A DNA stretch of 64,000 bases. Origin: Sipunculus nudus (lineage: Eukaryota; Annelida; Sipuncula; Golfingiida; Sipunculidae). The stretch spans positions 17,133,664 to 17,197,663 of the forward strand of contig CM049315.1 in the NCBI GenBank assembly GCA_026874595.1, in the 5' to 3' direction. Position numbers and translations under genes: made by a program. The notes beneath the pieces were generated by a model. That model was not told the origin of the DNA, ran no database searches, and worked only from the letters and a program-made list of their open reading frames with translations. Positions 73-56,601 of this stretch are shown one piece after another (positions within the stretch are counted from its first letter, which is position 1; the number at the start of each line of letters is the position of its first letter).

Positions 73-3000
73 TATCTGCTGGTAAAATTTTTGAAGAACG
101 TCGATACCAAGAGTCACCCCTGTTACTGGCAGCACAGCAGTTTCTTGCAGTGCTATTTGTTGAGGAAGCCAGGCTGCCAGTATCTGAGCAGGAATCCTGT
201 AAAAGGCTGTCACAGATCCTGGATACCCCTACAAAACAAGGTAAGACACGGTCTTTCTTCTGTCTGTGAGACACAGAGAAAGAGAAAGACAATAAGCGAG
301 AGAGAGAGAGAGAGCGGTGGCAAGGGCAATTACACAGGGGGCAGAAATAATAGTAAAATTATTGATTTAATACATGATTTAAAACATTTTCTGCAATTAA
401 CCAGACATACATATGTATACTCTTAACTGCATAGTTGTAATCTTAGAACAAGTTACAGTAATTTCTAGTGATCTTGGTTAATTTTGAGGAATTGTATTAT
501 CTTATTCTTAGGATCATCAGAAAATGGGGATGTGTTCTCAAACTGCACAGGTGCCCACCTTTGTCAGTCGTTAATCAAAGTGTACGACGCAGTCAGCATG
601 AAACCTTTTGAACAGGCTGCTGTATTTAAGTTAGCTGCTGTTAATTCTCTTAAGGGATTAATGGCAGTCAGTGCATCAGCTAAAATGGCAGCATTGGAAG
701 GTGAGAATGTTCTTCTTTTACTTCTGTTGTATGAATTATTCTTTTACAATGAATATGATAAATGTAATAGTTACAGAATATAATACCAGTTACCAGAATT
801 AATATACATTTTAAGATATAAAGTCTTCTGTCTGAATATTTTTATAGGTCAAGGCAAAAGGTTAATATGAAAATCAAAGTCAAAATGACCATGAATCAAC
901 ACAATGGTATTTGTAAATTTGTTATGCAAGTCTTAGATTGAGAGTGTAGTATGTTGTTTTACCCATGAGTAGTCCACCTGTTAATAGTGTAATTTTCTAT
1001 GTTTCAGCTGGTCTTGTAGAGAGTATAACAAACAACATCCGTCACCTTCACGTACAGCTGAGTCTAGATGCCTTGGAACTTAACAGGGCTGGAGGAAACA
1101 AGAAAAAGGTACATGTTCACCTGCACAGAAACAGATAATATGCAAACATTTCATAGACTTAAAACTAATTATATATTATCTATTTGGAACAGTCTCCTGG
1201 CCTTAGAAGCCCAAGCACTGTTTGATTAAAATGTCCTTTCACCAGCAGACCTGAATCAATATACATCTTTTATATTATTGACAGTGGTGGCACTTGACTT
1301 TTGTCATAGAACTCCTCTGTGGCCACACATTGGTAATTTCCCATATTTTCACCTTAATTCTGAGAAATTTGACATTATTTTTCCAAAAGGTGATTAGCAG
1401 CACCATCTGCCAGCAACTACATGAACTCAACTTTATTGCTCCGCAATGGTGCCAGGTGCTGTTATTTAAAGGAACAATACAGACTTTCTTGTCATAGATA
1501 GCATGTGGAGATTGATTCCGTATTACTCTCTCATGACATCTTCCTCAGAGCCAGGTGTCAAGCTGGGTTGAGCAGAGACCTTGCTTCAGAGGGACTCCTG
1601 GCCTGCTGTGTCATGAATTTTGAACAAGCGTGCATGTGATTGTCAAAAATCATAGAGCTGCCAATCAGATCCATTCCTACAATAGTAAATGGTGCACAAA
1701 AATCTAAACTGTTCACAAGTCTTATCAACAAGAACACATGCACTGGAAACTCTCCAGGTTTACAAGCCTTAATATCATTGGTCAGATTTTCTATAACAAC
1801 TCCGATCACCAGAAAGTTAATCCCTGATACCTAGAAGGGTCGCATGCAAGCCACCAGATTGGTTCAATTGATTTATTGATAATCCATGAAATAGTGTATT
1901 TGGGGCAAACTACTGTATTTCTTCTATTTTAAACCGCACATCTATTTAAAACCAGACCTAGACTTCGCCAAAATCGATTATGAAATCCCTCTAGACAACT
2001 AATACAAAGAGCCCCCATTTCGTACAAAAGGTAAAGGAATATTTCAAGGAATATTTATGCTCTGATTTCGTGCTTGAGATGGTGGATTCTTGAGAGTTTG
2101 AATGTTCATTACAGCCCTAGTGATTCTTATATGTTAGGAGAACCCTCTGCTGGTTGAGTTGACACATACACTGGAGCTGCTGAGGAACTTCATGCATCAG
2201 AACCAGGAGGTGAAGCAGGCGGCCTGTGAATGTAATGTGGCGGGGCTACTGCATGGGCTGTGGGCCTGGTGCCAGCTTGAACAGAGTCTCATGTCCACAG
2301 TGCTGGCCACGCTGGCTGTGTATGTAGCAGGCTGTCCACAAGGTAAGATGGTGCTGGCCGCGCTGGCTGTGTAGGTAGGAGGCTGTCCACAAGGTAAGAC
2401 GGTGCTAGCCACACTGGCTGTGTAGGTAGGAGGCTGTCCACAAGGTAAGACAGTGCTAGCCACACTGGCTGTGTAGGTAGGAGGCTGTTCACAAGGTAAG
2501 ACGGTGCTAGCATCGCTGGCTGTGTAGGTAGGAGGCTGTCCACAAGGTAAGTCGGTGCTAGCCACACTGGCTGTGTAGGTAGGAGGCTGTCCACAAGATA
2601 AGATGGTGCTGGCCACGCTGGCTGTGTAGGTAGGAGGCTGTCCACAAGGTAAGATGGTGCTGGCCACGCTGACTGTGTAGGTAGGAGGCTGTTCACAAGG
2701 TAAGATGGTGCTGGCCATGCTGGCTGTGTAGGTAGGAGGCTGTCCACAAGGTAAGATGGTGCTGGCCACGCTGGCTGTGTAGGTAGGAGGCTGTTCACAA
2801 GGTAAGATGGTGCTGGCCACGCTGGCTGTGTAGGTAGGAGGCTGTTCACAAGGTAAGATTGTGCTGGCCACGCTGGCTGTGTAGGTAGGAGGCTGTCCAC
2901 AAGGTAAGATGGTGCTAGCCACACTGGCTGTGTAGGTAGGAGGCTGTTCACAAGGTAAGACGGTGCTAGCCACGCTGGCTGTATAGGTAGGAGGCTGTCC

Positions 3001-6000
3001 ACAAGGTAAGACGGTGCTAGCCACCCTGGCTGTGTAGGTAGGAGGCTGTCCACAAGATAAGATGGTGCTGGCCACGCTGGCTGTGTAGGTAGGAGGCTGT
3101 TCACAAGGTAAGATGGTGCTGGCCACGCTGGCTGTGTAGGTAGGAGGCTGTCCACAAGGTAAGATGGTGCTGGCCACGCTGGCTGTGTAGGTAGGAGGCT
3201 GTCCACAAGGTTAGATGGTGCTGGCCACGCTGGCTGTGTAGGTAGGAGGCTGTTCACAAGGTAAGATGGTGCTGGCCATGCTGGCTGTGTAGGTAGGAGG
3301 CTGTCCACAAGGTTAGATGGTGCTGGCCACGCTGGCTGTGTAGGTAGGAGGCTGTTCACAAGGTAAGATGGTGCTGGCCACGCTGGCTGTGTAGGTAGGA
3401 GGCTGTCCACAAGGTTAGATGGTGCTGGCCACGCTGGCTGTGTAGGTAGGAGGCTGTCCACAAGGTAAGATGGTGCTGGCCACGCTGGCTGTGTAGGTAG
3501 GAGGCTGTCCACAAGGTTAGATGGTGCTGGCCACGCTGGCTGTGTAGGTAGGAGGCTGTTCACAAGGTAAGATGGTGCTGGCCATGCTGGCTGTGTAGGA
3601 GGAGGCTGTCCACAAGGTAAGATGGTGCTGGCCACGCTGGCTGTGTAGGTAGGAGGCTGTTCACAAGGTAAGATGGTGCTGGCCACGCTGGCTGTGTAGG
3701 TAGGAGGCTGTTCACAAGGTAAGATGGTGCTGGCCACGCTGGCTGTGTAGGTAGGAGGCTGTTCACAAAGTAAAATGAATATGTGCTTGGAGGTTGTTCC
3801 TTGTTCCATTGCAGTTTTTGAAATTATCAGACAGATTTAAAAAATGAAACTTATCGTAAAATCTGCTTGGAATTTCCAGAGTATGCTTCATATACAGTAA
3901 AGCCTTGTTGTGTTGAAGTGGAAGAACTGATAAAAAATTAAGATACAACAGAGGTTCACATTAGTGGATAATACTTAGTATTCATTAAACTAAACTTTGC
4001 AGATCATATAGCTTTATATTGACACCAGTGGGGTTTCCAATATCAACAAGTTTTGACAGGTGTTTAGCTCAGCTGACTTTCAGGCATGCTGAGCTATAGC
4101 AGTTGGTCTTCGTCCTTTGTTTTTCTGCCCCGCAATCATGCCATTTGTTAGCAGGGTTAAAACCTAACTATTAGACACAAAAATTTCCTGCTTAACATCT
4201 ACCGTAAACAGGTACTGGTAAAATCTCTATGCAAACCTGACATCTTTGACAAGTGCAAATCATTATTGGACTCATTTATATTTCTTTACAGATATTTTAC
4301 TTTATTATTATCATTATTTTTATTATATTATTTTATTACTATTATATTATTTATAGTGATATTATATATTATCATTATAGCATGTAGCTCCTTAGCCTTC
4401 ACATCAGCCATGGCTGGACAGGAGAAGGCCCCAGTGAAAGGTCCCCACAGCCCCAACTCCCTGGTCCACGCCCTGATTAAACTGGTGCAGAAGAGCCAAG
4501 CATGCGGTAATAGTCGACTCGTAAAGAGCATCTTTACTATCCTGGCTACACTGACATTCTCTCAGGAATGTAGAGGTATTCTTTGGAAGGTAGGTCTGTG
4601 TATGCAGTTCCCTCTCAATTAATACCCAGATTCTCAAAGTAATAGGGGTGATATTAGAAAGTGTTGTATAATGGTGTTTAATTAGTGACCTGGGTGCGCA
4701 CTAGATGTCGGAAGCAGTGATGCAGTCGAGTCCTCACATTTTCAAGTCTGTGTACAAGTCCAAGTCCAGCCTCCATGAGTCCCAGTCCAATTCAGAGTCT
4801 TTGAGGTTCAGGTCCAAGTCCCCCCTTCAAGTCTGAGTCATCCAGAGTTCAAGTCCTAGTCCAATAAAAAACTTTTTTTATAAAAAGAAAAATTAAAGTG
4901 GAACTTAGAGATTACATTGAGAAGTACTTTTATGTCAGTTTACACATGCCCTTTATGTTAAGGTTTAATTGCATTAAGCTCCCGATGCAGACCTACAGCT
5001 TGTTATATGCCGTCTTTTTTGTAATACTCTGTAAGTAATTACCACATGTATATTAATGTCTTTATGGTATGCAACAGAGGTTTCCTTCTGCTGGACTTGA
5101 GATTGACTTGGCCTGATTTCTCGAGTCCTTACCTCTAAGTCTGAGTACAAGTCCAGGACACTCAAGTCCAAGTCCGAGTCATAAAAAATGGACTAGAGTC
5201 CATGTCCGGACTCAAGTCCTCCATCACTGGTCAATCACTGGACTGAAGATGGCAAGTTATGTGAATAGCAAGGCCTGTCTTACTTGGAGGAACCAGTGAG
5301 GTACCAGTGTGTTTAAAGCGTGGTCACCTGGCTCAGAATAAATCAATCAAGAATATAAATCAATTGATCCATAACACCAATACTGCTGTGACCAATCATG
5401 TGTTTTTGTTTGTTATCATGACTTCATTTTAGGCTTTTTTGCATAATTTAATCCAGGGATTTGGCATACATAATGCAGTGGTGAGGTCACAGACAATTAT
5501 TATGAGACAAATTTTTATTCTGGTGTTAATCAGGGGGGATATTTGAATGTTATGTGTCAAAGCCACCATTATGTAAAGAAGTGTAATGTGAACCAAAAAT
5601 CATTCTTAACAGCCCAGCCAATGATGCTCAGCCAGTTTGTAAAGTGGCAAAATACTGGTCTCATTGTCTAAGTTCCTCAGATTAACCCTGAAAACTTTCA
5701 CTGGCACCATACTTCAGGCCTGGGAAGTGGTATTGTTGTTCCACCCTGTCACAGAGGTGACCCTTGGGATGGCCCATCAAACAGATCATCCTCAGAGAGG
5801 GGATGATTATGACTGTGAACTCAAAACCATCTGATTATTCTTATCAGTAAAACTTTCTGTATTAGCAAATATTTGTGCATGTGGGTTTGATGCCAGAGGT
5901 CAACCATGCTGGTTGTTCCATCTACTTAAACATGCTGTCTGTTATCATTCCTATATGGCAGAAGCTTACTATCATCTTAACTTTGCTATTATAAGACATG

Positions 6001-9000
6001 TTAAATCAGATATTCAGCTAAACTTTTGACAGCACCATATCAGCCCTCTGACATTATGACAAGATTACTGGCCTACTGAGTCGTGTTTGTCAGGCTAAGC
6101 TTTTCATGGAATATTGGATTTAACTCTGGATGTGTATTTTTGGTTTCAGAGCAACTTCCTGCAGGAGTTTAGCAAGTTTTCTACCAAGAAGAGTAAAGGC
6201 GCCATGAAGGAGACACTATGGCTGGACTTGTTTGTGAATCTCTCATTCTCCACAGAAGGCCAGCAGATGATGCTCAAGATACAAGGTTGGTCCACAAATA
6301 AATTTGAGACCCATCAGAAATCCAGTTTGGCCACAATGCTGCAAATTTTGAAGGAGCCCTAAATTGATGGTAGCCTGTAGGGTCCCAATCATTTATAGGT
6401 AAAATAACTGTAAGACAACTGAGCTATAGTGATCACCCTTTGTCCATCATCTGTCCGGTTGTGCGGCCATCTGGCCATTCACAGGGTATATCTTAACTGT
6501 TTGACCTAGAAACTTTTAATTATACATCAAGGGAGATCCTTGGCAAGTCTCCTTGGAAACCTGAAATTAGGTCATGGTGAACTATATTTTGTGACCTATG
6601 GGCCAAAAATATGATTTTGAGCTCCCAGAGAGTCGGTTGGGCACAAATTGTATGTTAGGCCTAGAATCTTCTAATGCAACATGCTGGGATGTTTAAGGAA
6701 ATTCTTCTTATAATCCTGATATTAGGTCATGGTGACCTATATTTTGTGACATATGGGTTGAAAAAAAGGTTTTCAGCACCCAGACAGTCAGAAGGGGCAC
6801 AAATGTTATCCATTAGGCCTAGAATCCTCTAACATAACATTTAGGAAGGTCCTAGACAAATGTCCTGGGAAAAGTGAAATTAGGTCACTGCGACTTTATT
6901 TTGCGACCTATAGGAAAAAGATGTCATATGAGCACCCTGAATGTCAGATGGGCACAAATCTTATCTGTTCAATCAAGAAACATCCAACTGTACGTCCAGG
7001 GAGGTCCTAGCTGAATCTCCTTGGAAACCTGAAATTAGGTCGTGCTGATCTATATTTTGTGACCTACGGGTCAAAAATATGATTTTGAGCACCAAGAGAG
7101 GGTCAGAGGGGGCACAAATTGTATCCATTAGGCCTAAAAATTTCTAACATAACATCCAAGTTTGGCCTAGGCAAATGTCCTGGGAAACATAAAATTAGGT
7201 CACTGTGACCTATATTCTGCAACCTACTGGTAAAAAGGTGTCAGATGGGTACAGATTGTATGCATTAGGCCTACTTCCTGGGAAAATCTCCTTTGAAATT
7301 AAAAATAGGTCATGTTGACCTTTTTTCGTTGAGCTACGGACCAAAAGCATAATTTTGTATTTATTTTCCTTGGAACCTTCTATTGTGAAATCCAAGGGGT
7401 TGGGGTCCCTTGCAAGATTCCTGAAATTTTTATTTTCCTTCCATTTTTCAACATATTAACATCAGCCATAGGCTATTCTCACAGAGAATATATAACATTA
7501 ATAAAAGAAATTAGCACCCAGTTAAATTCAGCTGAGTGTCATGGCCCATGGGCCACTTCTTAGTTCTGCATTAAACTTGAATTACTGGTGAGTCCAGTAA
7601 AGGGTACAAAATGAACTATAATATTGCCATATTCATGAGTTTGTTGATAGCACTTTTACTCAGAATATTTCATACAATGGTTCTTGGAATGTAAATTAAT
7701 ATTTTATTGGTATATAAACCTTTAAGTTTCTTTTTTCAGTAAAACAGGTAAATATGATGATGTTTGAAATATTTTCAGAACAGAATGTATCAAAGAAATA
7801 AGCAATTTTATTACTTATATGGACAAGGGAAATAATTTTCATAGATGTTCCACCAGACAAGTTATTGTTAAATCTCAGCTTCATGATGTTCAGTAATATT
7901 TGTCTGTTTTTTGAAAGAGCTGGTACCTGCCAGTAATATTGGTCCCATCCAGGAACATCTTCACTTCAAAACATTTGATTTTAATTAAACTGTTTATTAC
8001 TATACTTCATGTATTTGACAATATATATATGATATATATACCAATATAAAATAAAATGACCATATATTTTTGGTAGGTTGTGTTGAATTATTGATTGAAA
8101 TGGGTAACCGGGGAAACCAACACCATCAACGATGCTGTCTTCTGATTTTGCGGAATATGTGCTGTCATGCTGGGAATAAACCAAAGTTACTAACAAATGG
8201 TAAGATGTTCACATGTTTGTATTATTCATGCTAGTACACCGGGTGTGGTTTTGATGTGTACTGTGAACCTTTGTCAAGATCTGTTGGACACCATTCCACA
8301 ACTGTTTAAAACCACATCTTGTCAATAATATTCAGTATTTTGATTGCTAAGGGTTAAACATCCAGCCCTTTATAATGGTACCTGAAAACTGATTAAATAT
8401 TTGTTGATACTTGGTATTGTCAATCTTTTTGTTGATCGTAAAAAAAAGCCTTGAAATATGTTATACTCTTGGAAAGCTTCTTGATTTCCAATACATGGGA
8501 CACAAAAGTTTCTAGCATAATGAAATAGCAAAATGTGATGTGTGTAAACCTTGACAAAATTTGATATGTGTGATGTAATTTTAACTAAACCTTGACTTTT
8601 TATAAATGCACCATTGTTTTCTTTTTCCAGAGAAACTGTTGCCATTCTTCCTACAGCAGCTGAATGGAGAGTCAGATGAGCTGAGGAACATAGCATCATC
8701 AGCTCTGTGGGGACTCCTGTATAACAACCAGAAGGTAAGCGTGTCATGTCATGTCATATCATATCATTATCACAAAGAATGCTGAATGGAGAGTCAGATG
8801 AGCTGAACATAGCATCATCTGCTCTGTGGGGACAGGATATCCATTGCAGTATATACCATGTCTTTCCAAGTTAGACATATACTATTGCTTAATGTTGCTT
8901 CATGCTATATTGTACAAATGTTTAAATATATTATATGCCTTTTTAGCCCTCAGCCCTCTAGGCTGATGGGCTATTGTCATCACCCAAGCTGTCCGTCCGT

Positions 9001-16925: not shown

Positions 16926-24923
<7,998 letters not shown>

Positions 24924-28204: not shown

Positions 28205-28352
28205 GAAAATAAATAAAAAAATTTCCATCTTGCGTGGTGCAGCAATATTGCAATTACAATCATTTCCTTTGTCGTTGCAACAAACTAACATTCAAGCTGT
28301 TTTCAGTTACATTCTCTCATTATCTCATATCTCTCATTTCCTTTTTTTTCAG
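25140..28352. other. Intergenic: homeobox gene to dehydratase gene
   Basis: No coding gene is supported. It contains an (AT)n run at 25547-25590, C-runs near 26300, 26598 and 26627 inside a probable transposon remnant (CCCCCCCC with ACGCTCCAC), an (AT)n run at 26723-26769, a repeat element at 26773-27522 and an (AT)n run at 28149-28199. A 5' non-coding exon of the dehydratase gene probably lies here but I cannot place it. Confidence 0.55.
26773..27522 (+). mobile_element. AGCTCAGCTG-family repeat, nearly complete short copy
   Basis: It starts TTTAGCTCAGCTGGCCTATG, then GGGCTATTGTGATGGGTCTA and TCCGTCGTCC, and ends GAGCTTCATGACCCATGGGT followed by CACTTG. It has the same head and tail as 6414-7560 and, inverted, 53216-54264. 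It directly abuts an (AT)n microsatellite, as does the copy ending at 51240. No ORF. Confidence 0.6.
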
Positions 28353-28355
28353 CTT

Positions 28356-28385
28356 ATGAAATGGCAAAAAATGTTCCAAGGATAA
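28356..28385 (+). promoter_or_regulatory. Overlapping upstream ATG before the dehydratase start
   Basis: An ATG at 28356, out of frame and five bases before the main ATG, gives a nine-codon frame that ends TAA at 28383-28385. Its context is weak (C at -3), while the main ATG has GAAATGG, so leaky scanning would favour the enzyme. Confidence 0.4.
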
Positions 28386-29641
28386 AGGCAGTTCGTGCCT
28401 ACATCACTGAATCAAGCGGTGGTGATCAGGGAGCCGACTGTCATGACGTCATTGATAAACACTGGATTAACGGTTACCCCACCCCGGTGGCCAATCCCAT
28501 GTCCAGTTACCCCCAGTACGCTAAGACCAGGAAATCATGGGGTATCAACGCTTTGGGCTCTCTAGTGGTGGAGGTAGAAGCCGAGGATGGCACCACTGGG
28601 GTCGGTGTAACAATTGGTGGAGAACCAGCATGTTACATTGTGGAGAAGCATCTGAGCCGTTTCGTGGAAGGTCAAGACCCACGTGACGTTGAGCTGATGT
28701 GGGATCAGATGTTTAGATCCACCTTGAACTACGGGCGGAAAGGTCTTCCGTTACAGGCGATCAGTGCGGTAGACATTGCATTGTGGGATTTATTGGGAAA
28801 ATTAAGGAATGAGCCCGTCTATGCCTTATTAGGAGGGAAAACGAAACAGCGACTACCGGTGTATTCTACTACAGCACGGCCAGATTTGGCGAAAGATTTT
28901 GGATTTGTTGCAGCGAAGATTCCCTGTCCGTATGGACCCGCAGACGGAGATGACGGATTGCGAAAGAATGTAGAATTCTTTCGATCATGGCGGGAAAAAG
29001 TAGGACCCGACTTCCCACTCATGTTAGACTGCTACATGGCTCACACGGTCTCCTACTCGATCAAACTGGCACAATCCCTGGAACCTCACGGTCTCAAGTG
29101 GATGGAAGAATTTTTACCGCCTGATGATTATGACGGATATAACCGTGTCAGGAACTCGCTGAACAGCAGCAAAGTCATGTTGACCACGGGCGAGCACGAG
29201 TACACTCGTTACGGCTTCCGTCAGCTGATAGAAAGCCGCTGTGTTGATATCTTACAGCCGGATATCACGTGGTTGGGCGGTATTACGGAGGCCCGGAGGG
29301 TGGTTGCCATGGCATCTGCGTACGATATTCTCGTGATACCACACGGCTCCAGCGTTTATTCATACCACCTTCAGTACGCATTCCGCAACTGCCCTCTGGC
29401 GGAGTATATTAACCTCAGCACCAACGCAGACGAGATAGTTCCGTACTTTGGCGGGATTTTCCCAGACGAACCCCTGCCCAAGGATGGGTTTATCGATTTA
29501 CCTGATAGGCCCGGATTTGGGGTTACTCTTTGCAAGGATAATCTTAGGAGACCTTACAACAGATCAGTGGAGGAATCCGCAGCACAGTTTGCCCGAAATG
29601 CTCAACAAGAAATGCCAAAAGTGGCATCAATGCCGTTCTAA
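28361..29641 (+). CDS. L-rhamnonate dehydratase-like enolase-superfamily enzyme, intronless
   Basis: 426 aa, about the length of bacterial RhmD (about 400), which dehydrates L-rhamnonate to the 2-keto-3-deoxy sugar acid; substrate here is inferred from family. The enolase N-terminal lid is about residues 8-155 and the barrel 165-395. Mg ligands visible by family pattern are D223 (LMLDCYM), E249 (KWMEEFLPP) and E278 (TTGEHE); D301 (LQPDITW) and H328 (VIPHGSSVYS) fit the catalytic dyad. H28 and H34 near the N-terminus match RhmD substrate residues. The whole CDS is one exon, GC-richer than its surroundings. A strong acceptor (C-run, T8, CAG) at 28341-28352 implies a 5' UTR exon upstream, or an N-terminal extension since the frame stays open to the acceptor. 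The bacterial-type sequence in an animal contig suggests old horizontal transfer. Confidence 0.9.
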   Translation: MAKNVPRIKAVRAYITESSGGDQGADCHDVIDKHWINGYPTPVANPMSSYPQYAKTRKSWGINALGSLVVEVEAEDGTTGVGVTIGGEPACYIVEKHLSRFVEGQDPRDVELMWDQMFRSTLNYGRKGLPLQAISAVDIALWDLLGKLRNEPVYALLGGKTKQRLPVYSTTARPDLAKDFGFVAAKIPCPYGPADGDDGLRKNVEFFRSWREKVGPDFPLMLDCYMAHTVSYSIKLAQSLEPHGLKWMEEFLPPDDYDGYNRVRNSLNSSKVMLTTGEHEYTRYGFRQLIESRCVDILQPDITWLGGITEARRVVAMASAYDILVIPHGSSVYSYHLQYAFRNCPLAEYINLSTNADEIVPYFGGIFPDEPLPKDGFIDLPDRPGFGVTLCKDNLRRPYNRSVEESAAQFARNAQQEMPKVASMPF

Positions 29642-55619: not shown

Positions 55620-56601
55620 GTACACACACAATTTCTCTGGAGAAGCCCTCCATACATATAAGCACTGATGATTACAAGCGTCCGATAATAAACACATATA
55701 AAATCACTAATTCCATTTATTACACTGCACAGGGTAGTCCTCTGTTCACACTGCTCCTGATCACATGACCATGGTGCAAACGTGACATTGGAATGTTGAG
55801 CCGCTCACATCACCGTTTGCTCTCGCTGTGTATACAGTACTATTAGTCTGCTCACAGATACACGAGGCTCCAAACACCAACCGTCCCCGCTGGAGCACTG
55901 ATGTCTCCTTGAATCATCCAGCCCTAGGTAACCGAATATGTTTCAACACAACGATATCCAGTACCATTGTACATTCGCGTGTAAATAATGTCCTTCGTCT
56001 GTTCTTGGAAGCGTTCACAACATTTATAATTCGCTAGTATACCAGTCCGTTGGCAACTGCGATATCCGCTCTGAAGTCGTTACAGAGATATCAGCGTGGC
56101 CTTCCTCAGACACCGACTATATATGCCTAAAGTCATCACTTCATTTATATGCTTGCTGACGTCACAATCATCACTTTTTGCCGATCGTCAACAATTACAT
56201 GAATGTTTAGATGGACTCGCCTCCAAAGATAAAACCCTGAGAAAAACAAACTAAACAGGTGCTCGGCCTTTTAAGTCTACATTAAGGGGGCCCAATCACC
56301 TATAAAACACGTTGAATTAACACGAAAAATAGCTTATTCCCTTTCAAATAAATCTGTATCTGCCAAAAAAATTGCCTTGAAACCGTTTCCTTACTCCTGT
56401 AAACGAGTGTTAAAAACAGTGGACCGGGCGCGATCACAGGTGTCAACATAAACACAGCGCGCGGGGCAGTGTGCATAACAGAGCCGCAACACGTGTTAAT
56501 CAGGACATGACTTGACTGAGCTTGCCAAGAAATATAATACATATTCCTGCTGGATAAAACACCTCGGGTTGCCGCTCACAATCGGACCTCCGGTCACGCG
56601 G

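What the first reader, a model, noticed from the sequence alone, without database searches (positions are those of the whole stretch)
2300..3776. Minisatellite that has multiplied a 5' splice site in rotatin
About 29 tandem 51-bp units each carry the exon end and, in most, an intact GTAAGA donor. The first donor is the only one that keeps the frame: reading past it meets GTG TAG in the next copy. So splicing must pick the first of nearly thirty similar donors, or shifts between them would give a premature stop. Copy number is likely to vary between animals and could tune rotatin output by nonsense-mediated decay. The exon copy differs from all others at the TAT/GCA codons, suggesting selection holds it.
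Basis: partly seen in the sequence, partly recalled or inferred. Interest (0 to 1): 0.8.

Follow-up and report, generated by a model that had tools for sequence, protein, structure and literature searches.

The report
Tandem repeat copying an exon's end
A 51-letter stretch covering the end of one exon of an animal gene and its splicing signal has been copied about 29 times in a row, and similar arrays sit at other exon ends in this genome, so its cells may often have to choose among many near-identical splice signals.

Summary
At 2300-3777 lie 29 units (28 of 51 bp, one of 50), each the last 43 nt of a rotatin exon plus 8 intronic nt. Twenty-one of 29 keep GTAAGA and one has GTAAGT. Only the first donor avoids an in-frame TAG, and 20 decoys equal it in predicted U1 pairing. 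Rotatin is named by similarity to a recalled human sequence and found at one place in the genome.
The stop and the founder differences are weak evidence of selection: 7 of 10 such arrays have a stop in the first decoy, near chance. NMD tuning is untested, but human CBS carries the same anatomy (31-bp VNTR; more copies, less activity), and IFI6 is another precedent.
The larger result: the rotatin array is not alone. The donor word AAGGTAAGA occurs three in a row 550 times in this genome against 63 for its reversed control, although the single word is rarer than the control. All 7 distinct arrays in the capped listing (first 331 Mb) start at what I read as an exon end. One acceptor-word array looked at ends at an exon start.
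Best reading: a largely neutral exon-edge minisatellite, hidden because the outermost donor wins.

The parts
2138..2342 (+). rotatin exon (205 nt) whose 3' end seeded the array; acceptor atatgttag|GAG, donor AAG|GTAAGA at 2343
   Evidence: open frame, joins open to next exon; tblastn of a recalled human rotatin C-terminus hits 2168-2344, E 1.9e-10
2300..2350 (+). copy 1, the exon copy: 43 exonic nt + GTAAGATG; only copy with TAT and GCA and without TAGG
2343..2348 (+). first 5' splice site GTAAGA, inferred to be the one used
   Evidence: only donor reached without an in-frame stop
2351..3777 (+). 28 intronic decoy copies; 21 keep GTAAG, 28 of 28 carry TAG at unit position 22-24, 27 carry TAGG twice and one (copy 26) once
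2372..2374 (+). first in-frame TAG met if donor 1 is passed
4381..4589 (+). next rotatin exon (acceptor tatcattatag|CAT, donor AAG|GTAGGT)
   Evidence: a protein search of the genome returned this exon and 2138-2342 at this place only
73..240 (+). upstream rotatin exon
   Evidence: joins open
512..700 (+). upstream rotatin exon
   Evidence: joins open
1008..1108 (+). upstream rotatin exon
   Evidence: joins open
6147..6287 (+). downstream rotatin exon (bounds of the tblastn match)
   Evidence: recalled human rotatin, E 1.3e-5
8070..8219 (+). downstream rotatin exon (bounds of the tblastn match)
   Evidence: E 5.2e-7
8630..8746 (+). downstream rotatin exon (bounds of the tblastn match)
   Evidence: E 0.005, colinear with the others

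Best explanation
A segment spanning the exon-intron boundary (last 43 nt of the exon + first 8 nt of the intron) was tandemly duplicated. The downstream copy acquired two substitutions and became the founder from which the 28 intronic copies grew by ordinary minisatellite turnover. Splicing uses the outermost, exon-proximal donor at 2343, so the extra copies are intron and are removed; any slip to a later donor brings in an in-frame TAG and a message expected to be degraded. The array is therefore mainly a neutral passenger, tolerated because a duplication across an exon's edge hides in the intron. Similar arrays at other exon ends show that this is recurrent in this genome. Shown here: anatomy, founder pattern, reading frames, one gene place found, recurrence of the anatomy. 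Inferred: use of the first donor, NMD of slips, near-neutrality, the order of events.
For: Array and unit anatomy. Two substitutions shared by 28 of 28 intronic copies. Of the donors joined to the next exon in a script (1, 2, 3, 6), only donor 1 gives an open join; every later donor lies beyond the TAG of copy 2. Rotatin exons found at one place in the genome. Same anatomy elsewhere: AAGGTAAGA three in a row gives 550 matches against 63 for the reversed pattern, although the single word is slightly rarer than its reverse (15,857 against 17,969); 7 of 7 distinct arrays in the capped listing start at what I read as an exon end. Of nine such exons given to Pfam, three matched at E below 0.01: TPR_EDRF1 1.4e-21, ASXH 5.6e-4, PDZ 8.1e-3, the last two below the curated cut-off. 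Human precedents with a unit across an exon end: CBS and IFI6.
Against: No RNA data: use of donor 1 is inferred. Copy 5 has a stronger donor than copy 1, and 20 decoys are equal, so strength does not explain the choice. In the five arrays aligned, donor columns vary less than the rest (30/909 against 221/3002, p=4e-6), which would argue for some constraint; but four of the five were found by a donor pattern, and rotatin alone shows no difference (7/225 against 38/850, p=0.46). With the looser pattern AGGTAAG only 3 of 6 listed arrays were at exon ends in what I fetched. Exon calls in the sister arrays are my reading of flanks; 6 of 9 had no Pfam match below E 0.01. The automated exon test fails for rotatin itself by one pyrimidine.
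Confidence: 0.74

Rival explanations
1. Copy-number dial: a fraction of transcripts uses one of the 21 later GTAAG donors, carries the TAG and is destroyed by NMD, so rotatin output falls as copies are added, in the way reported for human CBS activity.
For: 21 of 28 decoys keep GTAAG, TAG in 28 of 28; at least four exons lie downstream of the stop. In human CBS more 31-bp units go with lower activity (PMC5188458 passage).
Against: No expression, population or copy-number data. A stop in the first decoy is near chance expectation (7 of 10 arrays). Decoy donor columns in rotatin show no constraint.
Confidence: 0.2
2. Silenced decoys: the two founder substitutions each made a UAGG (UAGGUAGG ahead of each decoy donor), the core motif of hnRNP A1-type silencers, so decoys are bound and masked and the bare exon copy wins.
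For: TAGG twice in 27 of 28 decoys, once in copy 26, none in the exon copy; none in any of the five rotatin exons counted; only 4 of 11,475 possible double substitutions give a stop and two TAGG. A review gives UAGG as an hnRNP A1 motif and says that an excess of hnRNP A1 over SRSF1 favours distal 5' splice sites (PMC9634572 passages).
Against: Motif chosen after the fact: a stop plus some previously absent 4-mer made twice arises in 22 of 588 stop-giving doubles. Only 2 of 10 exon-end arrays show TAGG in the first decoy and not in the exon copy. Nothing was tested of this animal's hnRNPs. GGAGG, also made, resembles SR-protein sites (recalled).
Confidence: 0.1
3. Splice-promoting decoys: many U1 sites just inside the intron recruit U1 and strengthen definition of the exon or block premature polyadenylation.
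For: 21 decoys with predicted U1 pairing of -9.5 kcal/mol or better.
Against: No direct evidence; 7 of 28 have altered donors without visible constraint.
Confidence: 0.06
4. Recursive splicing through the AG|GTAAG of each unit.
For: Each intact unit has AAG|GTAAG.
Against: In the unit tested (copy 2) the 17 nt before it hold 7 pyrimidines and 3 T, against 10-13 and 9-11 T in five acceptors of the gene.
Confidence: 0.02
5. Assembly artefact.
For: No raw reads available here.
Against: 17 unit types in 29 copies, longest exact repeat 183 bp; one place found in a 153-contig, 1.43 Gb assembly; sister arrays with other sequences.
Confidence: 0.03

Closest known systems
Human CBS 31-bp VNTR, c.1444_1467+7(16_21), exon 13-intron 13
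   Same: Unit spans an exon end and the first intronic bases (24 + 7 nt by my reading of the name; 43 + 8 here); tens of copies (PMC2630376 passages; PMC5188458 passages; PMC1395315 passages).
   Different: CBS is polymorphic (16-21 in those passages) with more units going with lower activity; here polymorphism is untested. The unit of 51 is a multiple of three and each decoy carries TAG; 31 is not a multiple of three.
Human IFI6 (6-16) minisatellite
   Same: Minisatellite that supplies several splice donors; two downstream repeat units are used as donors (PMC4526556 passages). The original paper, Turri et al. 1995, is not held; its title was seen in reference lists.
   Different: There alternative donors are used and give protein isoforms; here later donors meet a stop at once.
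Intron gain by tandem duplication of AGGT segments (ATP2A1; fission-yeast 24-bp repeats)
   Same: Tandem duplication around an AGGT creating extra splice signals (PMC4974935 passages).
   Different: There a new intron arises inside an exon; here an existing intron's donor is multiplied and the unit's acceptor potential is poor.

Membership tests
Exon-end (5' splice site) minisatellite, as human CBS and IFI6 | Tandem array whose unit contains the last bases of a coding exon and the donor | tested here: met
Exon-end (5' splice site) minisatellite, as human CBS and IFI6 | First unit is the real exon end | tested here: met
   open frame joining to next exon; blastp against recalled human rotatin runs across the junction without a gap there; by sequence only, RNA not available
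Exon-end (5' splice site) minisatellite, as human CBS and IFI6 | Several units keep an intact donor | tested here: met
   22 of 29 keep GTAAG
Exon-end (5' splice site) minisatellite, as human CBS and IFI6 | Copy number varies between individuals (VNTR) | not testable with these tools
   one assembly only
Exon-end (5' splice site) minisatellite, as human CBS and IFI6 | Alternative use of later donors or effect on expression | not testable with these tools
   no RNA data
Intron gain by tandem duplication | New intron with AG and GT from the duplicated segment | tested here: inconclusive
   anatomy is an existing intron whose donor is multiplied, and the unit tested has 7 of 17 pyrimidines before its AG; no RNA to exclude splicing inside the array
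Rotatin (RTTN) gene | Colinear exons similar to rotatin's C-terminus | tested here: met
   four colinear tblastn matches, E 1.9e-10 to 0.005, with a recalled human sequence; a fifth at 55839 has E 6.4 and is taken as chance. Pfam gave only two hits below cut-off to unrelated families, PDB none

The most novel reading that the evidence does not exclude
Exon edges are preferred birth or survival sites of minisatellites in this genome. Arrays across an exon's edge are shielded because the outermost splice site wins, so the genome holds a standing library of genes (about 30 for this one donor 9-mer by extrapolation from 7 in 331 Mb, plausibly hundreds over all donors and acceptors) with tens of near-equal splice sites in a row. 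That would be a natural experiment on how a spliceosome picks among identical sites.
Probability: 0.5. Interest if true: 0.68.

Novelty: new member of a known kind. Interest (0 to 1): 0.5.

Why it matters
How the spliceosome chooses among identical competing 5' splice sites is usually studied with engineered duplications (recalled). Here an animal genome has made them itself, with 20 decoys equal in predicted strength to the real site, and the rotatin case is not alone. RNA-seq from this animal would show directly whether the first donor always wins, with what error rate, and whether the error grows with copy number. It also suggests a filter: tandem duplications inside exons change the protein, while those across an exon's edge hide in the intron and can grow.

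Tried and rejected
RNA structure hiding the decoys: 2250-2450 folds worse than all 200 shuffles (z +2.68), rejected for that stretch. Higher-order repeat structure: offset 9 gives the closest copies (p=0.006 alone, 0.105 over 15 offsets), not significant. Selection on decoy donors in rotatin: none seen; pooled over five arrays donors vary less, but four of the five were found by a donor pattern (units without the exact anchor or of another length were dropped: 25 of 28, 19 of 38, 28 of 38, 14 of 21 and 15 of 22 anchors used). Recursive splicing: poor pyrimidine tract. UAGG silencer: kept as a weak rival. Relatives of the rotatin exons in GTDB genomes: none; PDB none at E 1; Pfam none above cut-off. 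Paper searches for a report of exon-edge minisatellites across a genome listed none in the rows shown; most subscription papers are not held. One listed paper on tandem repeats in human duplicated genes was opened (PMC2812944, outline and one section) and does not describe splice-site arrays in that section. A repeat with the donor word CAGGTAAGT and a search for the rotatin unit's own word did not complete, so the class rests on two donor words and one acceptor word; single-word base rates were obtained genome-wide for AAGGTAAGA only. Automated exon test (acceptor-like AG with at least 11 of 17 pyrimidines, open frame to the donor): 9 of 10 exon-end arrays pass (for L066 and L074 through an AG further upstream, for L072 in another frame, than the exon I read); rotatin fails (10 of 17 pyrimidines); 0 of 3 other donor arrays and 0 of 4 reversed-word arrays (5' side only) pass; 355 of 2000 random window positions pass at 60 nt or more. 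The threshold was set after seeing real acceptors, and only 4 of the 10 control arrays were fetched. In L039 and L010, and partly L040, the repeat goes on upstream of the first exact word, so an exon origin further upstream is not excluded.
Full report
The array is real. Tandem Repeats Finder reports 2300-3777, period 51, 29 copies, 94% matches. Cut by anchor there are 28 units of 51 bp and one of 50 bp (copy 26). Each unit is the last 43 nt of an exon and the first 8 nt of the intron. Of 29 donors 21 are GTAAGA, 1 GTAAGT, 4 GTTAGA, 2 ATAAGA and 1 AAA|GTAAAA; predicted U1 pairing is -9.5 kcal/mol for copy 1 and 20 decoys, and -10.6 for copy 5 (U1 sequence and weight matrix recalled).

The gene. 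Five exons (73-240, 512-700, 1008-1108, 2138-2342, 4381-4589) join to one open frame. A recalled human rotatin C-terminus matches 2168-2344 (E 1.9e-10), 6147-6287 (1.3e-5), 8070-8219 (5.2e-7) and 8630-8746 (0.005), in order, plus one chance match (E 6.4) far away. In blastp the alignment has no gap at the 2342/4381 junction. Pfam has only two hits to unrelated families below their cut-offs and PDB nothing. A protein search of the window's own genome returned the two exons at this place only; the genome has 1.43 Gb in 153 contigs.

Reading frame. Passing donor 1 gives GKMVLAALAV* with the stop at 2372; every decoy (28 of 28) has this TAG in the unit. Donors of copies 2-25 keep phase, so the problem is the stop, not a frameshift. 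With at least four later exons, such messages would be expected to undergo NMD (rule recalled).

Founder. The exon copy differs from the unit consensus at two sites only (T24G, C29G), and the 28 decoys share both. This is what one diverged copy that then multiplied would give. Retention of TAT in the exon needs no special explanation, since TAG would be nonsense. Both changes also make a TAGG: two in 27 of 28 decoys, one in copy 26, none in the exon copy. Of 11,475 double substitutions of the exon unit, 588 give a stop and 4 a stop with two TAGG; but 22 of the 588 make some absent 4-mer twice, so after-the-fact choice weakens this. A review gives UAGG as an hnRNP A1 motif and says that hnRNP A1 in excess over SRSF1 favours distal 5' splice sites (PMC9634572, passages).

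Recurrence. In this genome AGGTAAG three times at a period of 20-50 gives 2539 matches against 996 for the reversed pattern (listing capped). Of 6 distinct arrays in that listing, 3 start at what I read as an exon end (C1 3.297, 3.445, 10.194 Mb) and 3 show no exon at the first exact word (1.645, 1.888, 2.780 Mb); in these the repeat, more or less decayed, goes on further upstream. AAGGTAAGA three times (period 29-59) gives 550 against 63, while the single word gives 15,857 against 17,969. The capped listing holds 7 distinct arrays in the first 331 Mb (C1-C3 and C4 to 24.05 Mb); the reversed word has 10 in the whole genome (all 63 matches listed), 2 of them in the same 331 Mb. Expected from the control density is 2.3 (hand calculation, Poisson P of 7 or more about 0.01). 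All 7 donor arrays start at an exon end by my reading, with acceptor and open frame; one of the 7 (10.194 Mb) is shared with the first listing. Of the nine sister exons given to Pfam, three match at E below 0.01: EDRF1 TPR (1.4e-21), ASXH (5.6e-4) and PDZ (8.1e-3), the last two below the curated cut-off. The automated test passes 9 of 10 exon-end arrays (rotatin fails narrowly), 0 of 3 other donor arrays and 0 of the 4 control arrays fetched, with 355 of 2000 random positions passing.

Acceptors. TTTGCAGG three times gives 376 against 118 (no single-word base rate taken); the one array looked at (C1 33.046 Mb) ends at what looks like an exon start. So both edges of exons may be affected.

Is the stop special? 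In 10 exon-end arrays (rotatin, L036, L037, L038, L066, L071-L075) the first decoy holds an in-frame stop in 7. For about 15 codons chance alone gives about half (hand calculation). TAGG is in the first decoy and not in the exon copy in 2 of 10.

Known relatives. Human CBS has a 31-bp VNTR named c.1444_1467+7(16_21), i.e. 24 exonic + 7 intronic nt, 16-21 copies (PMC2630376, passages), with more copies going with lower activity (PMC5188458, passages). IFI6 uses two downstream repeat units as donors (PMC4526556, passages). The original papers were not held. The rotatin array is thus a new member of a known kind; its recurrence across one genome was not seen in the listings.

Verdict. Observation confirmed; interpretation partly supported. 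The most likely state is that donor 1 is used, the array is intronic ballast, and any effect on rotatin output is small or conditional. The recurrence makes the case worth following.

Noticed in passing
window 8659-8714 and 8781-8833: The 3' part of a later rotatin exon is repeated once in the following intron (two blocks at 100% and 97%, 3 nt missing) without its donor: a second exon-derived duplication in the same gene.
   Followed up: partly
G000:C4:24040866-24048079 (start in L075): A 55-bp exon-end array running over at least 7 kb (listing cut there) after an exon with weak ASXH similarity; its decoys carry TAGGGA where the exon copy has TGGAGA.
   Followed up: partly
L066 (G000:C1:79.647 Mb): 42-bp exon-end array in an EDRF1-like gene; the first decoy is open and in frame (VREFISEERHYYVK), so use of donor 2 would add 14 residues without a stop.
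   Followed up: partly
L083 (G000:C1:33.045 Mb): 47-bp array whose last copy looks like an exon start: a minisatellite multiplying a 3' splice site.
   Followed up: partly
window 2197-3210 and 2289-3836, minus strand: Two long antisense frames (337 and 515 aa) of 17-residue repeats; probably a by-product of a 51-bp unit.
   Followed up: no
window 6469-7357: Several diverged copies of a ~155-160 bp tandem repeat in a rotatin intron.
   Followed up: no
window 19361-19648 and 23869-24237: A homeodomain apparently split by an intron.
   Followed up: no
window 28289-29641: A 450-aa open frame of the mandelate racemase/enolase superfamily, apparently without introns.
   Followed up: no
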